Assembly: GCF_937891065.1 (NCBI RefSeq)
Contig: NZ_CALAEQ010000224.1
Span: forward strand, 1-49,020
Length of the DNA stretch: 49,020 nt
DNA from: an uncultured Lutibacter sp.
GTDB lineage: Bacteria; Bacteroidota; Bacteroidia; Flavobacteriales; Flavobacteriaceae
Direction: 5' to 3'
The position numbers were made by a program, and so were the translations under genes. Positions 9,526 through 11,202 of the stretch are shown here, in pieces. The notes beneath the pieces are model-generated. The model was not told the origin of the DNA, did not search any database, and worked only from the letters and a program-made list of their open reading frames with translations. How positions within the stretch are numbered: the stretch's first letter is position 1; each line of letters begins with the position of its first letter.

Positions 9526-9983
9526 TTAATTAAATTGATACCTTACTGACAAGGCTAAATCTAAATCTGTATCTTTTCCATAATCACCTATAATACCTAT
9601 TTCCGGTCTAAAATCAAGGGAAATTAATATAGGAGCTTCAAAGTTATATTCAATACCTATATTTCCATCAGCGTTAATAAATAATCCTTCATCTCCTTCT
9701 CCCATATAACTATTACCATAACTCCAAGAACCAATTCCTGCACCAAAACCAGCATACCAATTAAACCCATCATCAATATTCCAAACCCATTGATATATAC
9801 CTGTTAACTTAAATGCATTATAATCTTTATGGTTTCTATAACCTAAATCAACTTCAAACCGATATTCTTCCGATAATTGACGCTGATAGGAAATTTCACC
9901 ACCAAACCCATCATTATCTCCAAATCTTATCCCAATTGCATGATTTGATATTTCTTGCGAACTCGCTGAAAAACTTACAACGA
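9526..9983 (-). pseudogene. Outer-membrane beta-barrel protein, 3' part, split by the IS110 element
   Basis: Reading the minus strand from the element's edge gives VVSFSASSQE, the end of a signal peptide, then about 140 residues with alternating aromatic and polar residues typical of small barrels: GIRFGDNDGFGGEISYQRQL, EYRFEVDLGYRN, WYAGFGAGIGSWSYG, and a final strand LDLALSVRYQFN ending in Phe-Asn then stop (9526-9528). There is no usable start in this part because the IS110 element occupies the signal-peptide region. The missing start, MNKYVLVSVLLL, is found at 11202-11167 on the far side. Joining both at the shared TC dinucleotide gives one in-frame 163-residue protein. The intact protein would be a porin-like or OmpW/OmpX-like barrel; its ligand is unknown. 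The body shows no frameshift, so the insertion may be recent. Confidence 0.85.
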
Positions 9984-9986
9984 TTT

Positions 9987-10973
9987 CTATGACATAACCA
10001 AACGATTATGATAAAATTCTTGATTTTTAATTAATGCAAATATAATATGAATAATTTTGTTTCTAACTGCGTTTAAAACAAGCATTTTATTTTTACCTTC
10101 TTCAACTTTTCGGTGGTAATAATAAGCCAAATCATTTTCCAATCTTATCGCGCTAAGAGCTCCCATATGCAATATTTTTTTCAGTCCCTTGTCTGCATAA
10201 TTTGACACTTTATTTCTTCCGAAAATTGAAATCCCAGAAGTATTAGAAAAAGGAGCAACCCCTGCATAACAGGCCAATTTTCTTGGATCTGTAATTGTTT
10301 TAAATTCATTTGTTTTTACTAAAACATTCCAACATAAAATATCTCCCACTCCTGGGATAGATTTTAGTTGCTTGTTAAGTGTTTTTAGTGCCTCATCATT
10401 TGAGATTAATTGTTTAATTTCTCTTTCTAATTCTGTTATCTGTTTGGTGAGTTCTTTAATTAATTTATCATTTTTTTTGGTTAGGGTTTTAGCAATAGTT
10501 TTATTGCTTAAAATACTATTTTCTTTATTTTTTGTTTTTAATTGTTTACGTTGTTTTACTTTAAAACGTCTTTCAGAGAGCAGTATTTTCATTAAGTTTA
10601 TTTCTTCTCTTTGTTGTATATATGGTTTAATTTCTTCAAAATTTTTCTTTATAAACTCAGCAATTCTAATAGCGTCAATTTTATCATTTTTACCTCTAAT
10701 TAAACCTAGAGATCTTTTTAAATGTAAAGGGTTTACAACATAAAAATAGCAATCTAGTTCAGGTAATAGTTCCATCAATACCCAAGAATATTTACCTGTA
10801 TTTTCAATACAAACATGGGATACATTCTTATTGGATAAAAGAGTGTTAAAATACTTTAGAATGGCTTTCTTGTTATTTTTAATAACCGTTGATTTTTCTT
10901 CTTCAGAATAGATTCCAATATCTAAAGTATCTTTGCTAACATCAATTCCAATAAATCTTAAATTTGTTTTCAT
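9987..10973 (-). CDS. IS110-family DEDD transposase/recombinase
   Basis: 328 residues from the ATG at 10973; a frame extended upstream to a TTG at 11009 would overlap the second RNA hairpin and lacks homology. The N-terminal RuvC-like domain has Asp11 (GIDVSKD), Glu57 (CIENTGKY), Asp97 and Asp100 (GKNDKIDAIRIAEF), the DEDD set with the spacing known from Piv/IS110 proteins. A coiled-coil stretch covers about residues 130-200. The C-terminal Transposase_20 domain has LKSIPGVGDIL, LACYAGVAPFSNTSG and YADKGLKKIL; the conserved Ser-Gly pair at 246-247 is where the catalytic serine is expected. The chain appears complete, so the element may still be active. In characterised relatives the enzyme works with an RNA made from the element's non-coding end. 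Confidence 0.95.
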   Translation of the reverse strand: MKTNLRFIGIDVSKDTLDIGIYSEEEKSTVIKNNKKAILKYFNTLLSNKNVSHVCIENTGKYSWVLMELLPELDCYFYVVNPLHLKRSLGLIRGKNDKIDAIRIAEFIKKNFEEIKPYIQQREEINLMKILLSERRFKVKQRKQLKTKNKENSILSNKTIAKTLTKKNDKLIKELTKQITELEREIKQLISNDEALKTLNKQLKSIPGVGDILCWNVLVKTNEFKTITDPRKLACYAGVAPFSNTSGISIFGRNKVSNYADKGLKKILHMGALSAIRLENDLAYYYHRKVEEGKNKMLVLNAVRNKIIHIIFALIKNQEFYHNRLVMS

Positions 10974-10997
10974 ATCTTTGTTTTTAGTGAAACAATA

Positions 10998-11131
10998 AGT
11001 TAAACTCAACTCCTTGATAATGGGCTTTAAATCCCTAATTTCTATTTGAGTTTTAACTAAAACGGAAAAGGTCTGTATCGAAGTATAAGTTTTAAAACTT
11101 AGAGTAATTAGATAGTGTACCTTTTCCGTTT
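10998..11131 (-). ncRNA. Predicted bridge RNA (target loop and donor loop) of the IS110 element
   Basis: Read on the minus strand, two hairpins lie between the element's left end and the transposase ATG. Hairpin 1 has a perfect 13-bp stem, AAACGGAAAAGGT (11131-11119) with its complement at 11072-11060, closing a 46-base loop with a 16-bp inner palindrome (11101-11086). Hairpin 2 has a 12-bp stem with one bulged A (11058-11046 with 11009-10998) closing a 36-base loop. In hairpin 1, ATTACTC (11108-11102) equals the left target flank plus core, and the facing ACTTCGA (11084-11078) pairs at 5 of 7 positions with core plus right flank. In hairpin 2, the first eight loop bases ATAGAAAT (11045-11038) equal the element's right end, and the last bases AAGGA (11014-11010 region) complement TCCTT at its left end. 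Ends of the RNA are approximate. Confidence 0.72.
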
Positions 11132-11166
11132 ATAAATTTATTAAATTTATAATTGCTAATCTAAAG

Positions 11167-11202
11167 GAGTAATAATACCGATACTAAAACATATTTATTC
11201 AT
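11167..11202 (-). pseudogene. Outer-membrane barrel protein, 5' fragment (start of signal peptide)
   Basis: The minus-strand ATG at 11202 begins MNKYVLVSVLLL and is then broken by the IS110 element after a TC dinucleotide. Translation into the element would add only Leu before a stop at 11163-11161. It is the missing N-terminus of the barrel gene at 9526-9983; see that entry for the joined product. Confidence 0.8.

What the first reader, a model, noticed from the sequence alone, without database searches (positions are those of the whole stretch)
10998..11131. IS110 non-coding end folds into two hairpins with the layout of a bridge RNA
Seen: upstream of the DEDD transposase, on its strand, a perfect 13-bp stem closes a 46-base loop, and a 12-bp stem with one bulge closes a 36-base loop. 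Known: IS110-family enzymes use a bridge RNA made from the non-coding end, with a target-binding loop followed by a donor-binding loop. Inference: this is such an RNA from a Flavobacteriaceae-type element. It is compact and AT-rich, which differs from the well-studied enterobacterial IS621 RNA.
Basis: partly seen in the sequence, partly recalled or inferred. Interest (0 to 1): 0.85.

Follow-up and report, generated by a model that had tools for sequence, protein, structure and literature searches.

The report
Bridge RNA of a flavobacterial IS110
The two hairpins lie in a jumping gene of a flavobacterium and look like a guide RNA that pairs both with the element's own ends and with the DNA site it jumps into; RNAs of this kind are already known, but here the pairing can be read out base by base.

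Summary
The hairpins are real and fold far better than chance (z -4.40). They lie in the left end of an IS110-group element (window 9982-11166, minus strand) that has inserted into the signal-peptide part of a host gene; 15 relatives keep that gene uninterrupted. Both ends carry the core TC. Loop 1 matches the left and right target flanks; loop 2 matches the two ends of the element. Across related elements the guides follow the insertion sites better than swapped pairings (1 of 200,000 left, 3 of 40,320 right; other flavobacterial IS110s, right guide, 0 of 200,000). Stem 1 has compensatory changes at 10 of 10 positions counted, and the 'handshake' base follows target position 7. The transposase keeps the five catalytic residues of IS621. 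By sequence this is a bridge RNA; transcription and activity are untested, and the window's own target match is imperfect (3 of 14 bases differ). It is a new member of a known kind. Less usual: the right non-coding end is 3 bases, so the donor half-site overlaps the stop codon, and Bacteroidota-type promoter boxes meet at the circle junction. The left end is not more compact than that of IS621.

The parts
9982..11166 (-). IS110-group element (1185 bp with one core copy)
   Evidence: Ends shared with related elements; 15 relatives of the genus keep the host gene without it
9987..10973 (-). DEDD transposase/recombinase, 328 aa
   Evidence: PF01548 and PF02371 above cut-off; 27.7% identical over 289 aligned residues to IS621 chain 8wt6_A, with D11, E57, D97, D100, S246 at the catalytic positions
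11167..11168 (-). core dinucleotide TC, left side
9982..9983 (-). core dinucleotide TC, right side
11167..11178 (-). left target flank GTATTATTACTC (core included)
9974..9983 (-). right target flank TCGTTGTAAG (core included)
11156..11163 (-). -7-like box TAGATTAG (consensus TAnnTTTG) in the left end
   Evidence: consensus from passages of PMC9723704 and PMC7366714
9999..10002 (-). -33-like box TTTG inside the end of the transposase gene; 20 bases from the -7 box only if the two ends are joined
11132..11152 (-). AT-rich 5' hairpin; inferred RNA start near 11151
   Evidence: fold; start inferred from the -7 box position given in PMC9723704
11119..11131 (-). stem 1, 5' arm
11102..11112 (-). left target guide TCTAATTACTC (last 7 bases equal the target)
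11087..11100 (-). inner hairpin of the target-binding loop
11078..11085 (-). right target guide TACTTCGA (reverse complement TCGAAGTA against target TCGTTGTA)
11076..11077 (-). handshake bases of loop 1 (positions 81-82 in IS621 numbering)
   Evidence: numbering from PMC11208158
11060..11072 (-). stem 1, 3' arm
11046..11058 (-). stem 2, 5' arm
11037..11045 (-). left donor guide ATAGAAATT
   Evidence: matches right end ATAGAAATC, last pair G-U
11011..11019 (-). right donor guide TATCAAGGA: 7 of 7 pairs with TCCTTTA of the left end if its third and fourth bases flip out, as in IS621
   Evidence: IS621 pattern in PMC11208160 and PMC11208158
11009..11010 (-). handshake bases of loop 2 (positions 166-167)
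10998..11009 (-). stem 2, 3' arm
9982..9990 (-). left donor half-site ATAGAAATC, overlapping the transposase stop codon (9987-9989)

Best explanation
The left non-coding end encodes a bridge RNA of the IS110 group. When the element leaves as a circle, its right and left ends meet at the TC core; this places a TTTG box 20 bases before a TAnnTTTG-like box and should start the RNA near 11151. The RNA binds the recombinase. [quoted passage not shown] Shown from sequence: element ends, stems, all four guide matches, guide-target tracking across relatives, handshake tracking, catalytic residues, junction boxes. Inferred from IS621: transcription, circle formation, protein binding, recombination.
For: Stable fold. 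Stem 1: 116 Watson-Crick and 2 G-U of 120 cells in 12 distinct RNAs from 9 genomes, compensatory types at 10 of 10 positions; swapping arms gives 64 on average, 0 of 10,000 as high. Left guide: own target 5.0 of 7 beyond the core against 2.42 for others', n = 10, 1 of 200,000 permutations; right guide 4.25 of 6 against 2.07, n = 8, 3 of 40,320. Other flavobacterial IS110s: right guide 4.375 against 1.75, n = 16, 0 of 200,000. HyVt-579 element: left guide 10 of 10, right guide 8 of 8, core included. Right donor guide 7 of 7 in 22 of 22 copies. Position 166 can pair with target position 7 at 22 of 22 sites. Window site: left 6 of 7, right 4 of 6; 0 of 4,560 TC sites in the host part of the window reach both values, 2 reach the same sum. 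Catalytic residues kept. TTG 20 bases before the -7-like box at the joined ends in 16 of 21 elements, in 0 of 21 host flanks.
Against: No transcript, circle or recombination was tested. The window's own right guide differs from its target at two of six positions beyond the core, and 3 of 14 bases differ over the whole site. In its draft genome no site lies within one mismatch of the ideal target, and two-mismatch sites are not enriched (56 against 93 for the reversed pattern). Some copies match poorly on the left: G089a 2 of 7, G089b, G016a, G016c and G293c 3 of 7. Loop 2 and the element ends hardly vary, and most further copies were found by a loop-2 pattern, so the donor side rests on complementarity, not covariation. 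Rfam has no match. One full copy only was found in its draft genome.
Confidence: 0.94

Rival explanations
1. The hairpins are a 5' leader that only regulates translation or transcription of the transposase, with no guide role.
For: They lie directly upstream of the gene and are stable.
Against: Loop sequences follow the insertion sites across relatives and match both element ends, which a leader would not need. A second, regulatory role is not excluded.
Confidence: 0.03
2. The window's copy was a working bridge RNA but is now decaying: target guide and target have drifted and the copy no longer moves.
For: One full copy; 3 of 14 target bases differ, and no site in the genome is within one mismatch of the ideal; the -7-like box has TTAG in place of TTTG. 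In the published set most guides have zero to two mismatches to the consensus target (PMC11208160 section 7).
Against: Transposase frame and catalytic residues are intact; both donor guides match the ends; TAGATTAG also occurs in other elements.
Confidence: 0.2
3. The stems are chance AT-rich palindromes.
For: The region is AT-rich.
Against: z = -4.40 with dinucleotides kept and compensatory change at 10 of 10 positions of stem 1.
Confidence: 0.005

Closest known systems
IS621 bridge RNA and recombinase (PMC11208160: sections 5, 6, 7, 12, part of the extended-data legends and passages read; PMC11208158: section 11 and passages read)
   Same: RNA in the left end; two loop hairpins in the order target, donor; four guides that include the core; nine-base right donor guide that pairs discontinuously with seven donor bases; handshake base 166 with target position 7; DEDD plus serine residues; promoter across the joined ends.
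   Different: Core TC instead of CT; 27.7% protein identity; promoter boxes of Bacteroidota type instead of sigma-70 type; right end 3 bases with the donor half-site over the stop codon (a 52-bp part of the right end is mentioned for IS621).
ISEc21 seekRNA, IS110 type (PMC11187229, passages read)
   Same: Non-coding region upstream of the transposase gene, promoter made where the ends abut, guide RNA needed for movement.
   Different: Other host group; not aligned here.
IS1111 group (PMC11208160 section 12, PMC11187229 passages)
   Same: DEDD transposase with a guide RNA.
   Different: RNA mostly in the right end and subterminal inverted repeats; here the RNA is in the left end and the right end has 3 bases.

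Membership tests
IS110 group (bridge-RNA element) | Recombinase with PF01548 and PF02371 domains | tested here: met
   E 1.3e-19 and 5.3e-18, both above cut-off
IS110 group (bridge-RNA element) | DEDD residues and nucleophile serine | tested here: met
   D11, E57, D97, D100, S246 aligned to IS621 D11, E60, D102, D105, S241, taking the solved chain to carry two extra residues
IS110 group (bridge-RNA element) | Structured non-coding RNA in the left end with two loop hairpins | tested here: met
   (structure only; transcript not tested)
IS110 group (bridge-RNA element) | Loop 1 pairs with both sides of the target | tested here: met
   imperfect in the window's own copy
IS110 group (bridge-RNA element) | Loop 2 pairs with the joined element ends | tested here: met
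   Right donor guide 7 of 7 in 22 of 22 copies; left donor guide against the right end; complementarity only, the ends hardly vary
IS110 group (bridge-RNA element) | Same core on both sides, no target duplication | tested here: met
   TC on both sides read without a key in the window copy and 10 loci; joined host frame has 20 residues before QEIS, as in the relative
IS110 group (bridge-RNA element) | Circular intermediate with junction promoter | tested here: inconclusive
   Boxes at a constant spacing in silico; circle and transcript not testable
IS110 group (bridge-RNA element) | RNA-dependent recombination | not testable with these tools
   needs a bench assay
IS1111 group | Bridge RNA in the right end | tested here: not met
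   right end has 3 bases between stop codon and core

The most novel reading that the evidence does not exclude
In this Flavobacteriia lineage the right end has been absorbed into the recombinase gene: the stop codon is part of the donor half-site read by the RNA, and the last leucine codon supplies the -33 box of a phylum-specific promoter that exists only in the excised circle. RNA supply is thus gated by excision, and the end of the gene serves as protein code, guide-pairing site and promoter box at once.
Probability: 0.5. Interest if true: 0.5.

Novelty: new member of a known kind. Interest (0 to 1): 0.4.

Why it matters
It adds Flavobacteriia elements with readable guides, a TC core and signs of natural retargeting (two copies in one genome with different target loops, and a repeat-targeting element in many copies) to the bridge-RNA set. 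Recombinases from Bacteroidota with their own promoter type could suit tools for that phylum. The elements collected here give a ready test set for guide rules, including the handshake position.

Tried and rejected
Rfam: no match at gathering score in the window or up to E = 1 around the hairpins. Viral contigs: no relative by protein or by pattern. The first guide-target script took the wrong loop start for the G089 and G336 rows and is superseded; with its error it gave 22 of 362,880 (left) and 3 of 40,320 (right). Ideal target of the window's RNA in its own genome: no enrichment. A pattern made from the G016 sites found one further copy only, with one mismatch, so repeat targeting is supported for G293 (12 unoccupied copies, 0 for the reversed pattern) and not for G016. 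An uninterrupted relative of the split host protein has no Pfam match; calling it barrel-like is from its look alone. No covariance model was built and no structure was predicted.

Rows left out: 12 of 31 rows were skipped because an end or loop was not recognised by my patterns, three further copies (L074, L076, L079) were left out of the permutation, and 16 entered. In one search, of 32 elements nine gave no ends (L006, L010, L022, L057, L059, L063, L065, L069, L070), two lay too near a contig end (L008, L009) and 21 were counted. In one search the right end was not in hand for four of 22 copies (G089b, G336a, G336b, G604a), and for the other G293 copies one flank was cut by the contig end. 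The patterns for ends and loops were made after looking at the sequences.

Literature: searches (listings) showed nothing on Bacteroidota junction promoters of IS110 or on a donor half-site over the stop codon.

Full report
Observation. The 134 bases fold 4.4 standard deviations below dinucleotide shuffles, none of 200 as low.

What it sits in. The gene at 9987-10973 (minus) has both IS110 domains, 27.7% identity to IS621 over 289 aligned residues, and all five catalytic residues (residue numbers from PMC11208158, passages). Its draft genome (276 contigs) has one full copy. The genus is probably Lutibacter, family Flavobacteriaceae: contig G002:C8 of the same genus has the length of a Lutibacter agarilyticus record. 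Seventeen other genomes of the genus have the neighbouring DUF937 gene, and in all 17 the symporter gene lies on the other side. Fifteen of them keep the gene in between without the element; L042 and L044 lack that gene too. The split gene codes for a secreted protein of about 163 residues. With the element left out, the host frame is open with 20 residues before QEIS, as in the nearest relative, which fits a junction at TC.

Ends. Related elements found by protein search (L031, 70% identity; L032, 65%; G016, G293, G059, G089) show, without any key, a left end TC|CTTTAGAYT and a right end CATAGAAATC directly at the transposase stop codon (10 loci and the window). A pattern for the donor loop was then found in 5 of 397 family genomes and 3 of 395 order genomes (two of these three already in the first set); the reversed control gave none in the rows listed. 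It added G336 and G604 and further copies in G089 and G293. Viral contigs gave none.

Guides. Loop 1 of the window's RNA holds ATTACTC, equal to the left flank, and the reverse complement TCGAAGTA against the right flank TCGTTGTA. Loop 2 holds ATAGAAATT against the right end ATAGAAATC (last pair G-U) and TATCAAGGA, which pairs with all seven of TCCTTTA of the left end if two bases flip out; this is the nine-against-seven pattern described for IS621 (section 7 of PMC11208160; passages of PMC11208158). It holds in 22 of 22 copies, but the ends hardly vary.

Tracking. For ten distinct RNAs from nine genomes the left guide matches its own target at 5.0 of 7 positions beyond the core and others' at 2.42 (1 of 200,000 permutations). 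For eight, the right guide scores 4.25 of 6 against 2.07 (3 of 40,320). With the less favourable copy chosen where a guide has several sites, the counts are 57 of 200,000 and 6 of 40,320. Rows are related, so these are not exact probabilities. In 16 other flavobacterial IS110 elements, 14 with AC and two with GC as right-side core, the right guide scores 4.375 against 1.75, 0 of 200,000; there the left-side core often differs in its first base. Against: G089a left 2 of 7 (its right is 6 of 6), and G089b, G016a, G016c and G293c left 3 of 7; G016 right 2 of 6.

Window site alone. Left 6 of 7 and right 4 of 6. Of 4,560 TC sites in the host part of the window, 10 reach the left value, 127 the right value, none both, and 2 the same sum. 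Over 14 bases the site differs from the ideal at three; the genome holds no site within one mismatch and no excess at two (56 against 93 for the reversed pattern).

Stems. In 12 distinct RNAs (some share the same stem), counted outward from the loop without gaps over 10 pairs, 116 of 120 cells are Watson-Crick and 2 are G-U, and each of the 10 positions has compensatory types. Exchanging 3' arms among RNAs gives 64 on average, 0 of 10,000 as high. The G293 row was shifted by one pair. Stem 2 pairs in each of the 12 but with changing register and mismatches, and was not counted in this way.

Handshake. Position 166 can pair with target position 7 at 22 of 22 sites: 11 G-C, 10 A-T (G293, G059) and one G-T (G089a). 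Nine of the 22 are G293 copies, four of them with only three bases of left flank. The tree puts G293 and G059 in different subclades (supports 90/87 and 94/93, moderate), so two changes are likely. Position 81 is T in all 22, opposite the donor's A at position 7. The role of these positions in IS621 is from section 11 of PMC11208158.

Junction promoter. Joining right and left ends puts TTG exactly 20 bases before the TA of the -7-like box in 16 of 21 elements with usable ends (full TTTG in 11) and 21 bases before it in two more; three have neither. In the host flanks of the integrated copies none has it at 20, one at 19 and one at 21. A looser first count gave 18 of 27. The elements are related and share these ends, so this is conservation, not 16 independent cases. 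The Bacteroidota consensus, TAnnTTTG at -7 and TTTG near -33, is from passages of PMC7366714 and PMC2483708; [quoted passage not shown] johnsoniae. The window's own boxes are TTTG and TAGATTAG.

Right end. In the TC clade (one side of a branch, support 100/99) three bases lie between stop codon and core. The TTG is a leucine codon of the transposase in 8 of 8 genes read, against 52 of 257 other leucine codons of the same genes, and the stop is TAG in 8 of 8, against 5 of 33 long ORFs in the window (this gene among the 5) and 2 of 26 other IS110 rows, one of which runs off its contig. One of the eight, L098, gave a frame of only 219 codons. L058, outside the TC clade in the tree with weak placement, also has a 3-base right end, so this is not confined to the clade.

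Verdict. By sequence this is an IS110-group bridge RNA. Its kind is known: a bridge RNA was predicted in 85.7% of IS110s (PMC11208160, section 12). In the listings and the passages cited I saw no Bacteroidota junction promoter of IS110 and no donor half-site over the stop codon; most subscription papers and ISfinder were not searchable, so this says little.

Noticed in passing
L086 and L083 (genome G089): Two copies in one genome with the same stem 1 but different target guides in loop 1: a sign of natural retargeting. The right end of L083 was not found.
   Followed up: partly
genome G293, loci L084, L087, L089-L096: 18 copies of the donor-loop pattern; the target-like sequence GAAACAAGTTCAGNATGACG has 12 unoccupied copies there (and 7 in G016), so the element aims at a dispersed repeat.
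   Followed up: partly
window 9526-9981 and 11167-11202: Two pieces of a host gene for a small secreted, perhaps outer-membrane protein, split in its signal peptide by the element.
   Followed up: partly
L022 (G000:C60): A second, distant IS110 transposase in the same genome (35% identity) with a similar upstream region.
   Followed up: no
L007, L055-L077: In other flavobacterial IS110s the left-side core is often GC or TC while the right-side core is AC, so the first core base seems loosely kept.
   Followed up: no
L005 and L020 (genome G016): Each shows a second donor loop about 1.4 kb downstream of the first, so two copies lie close together.
   Followed up: no
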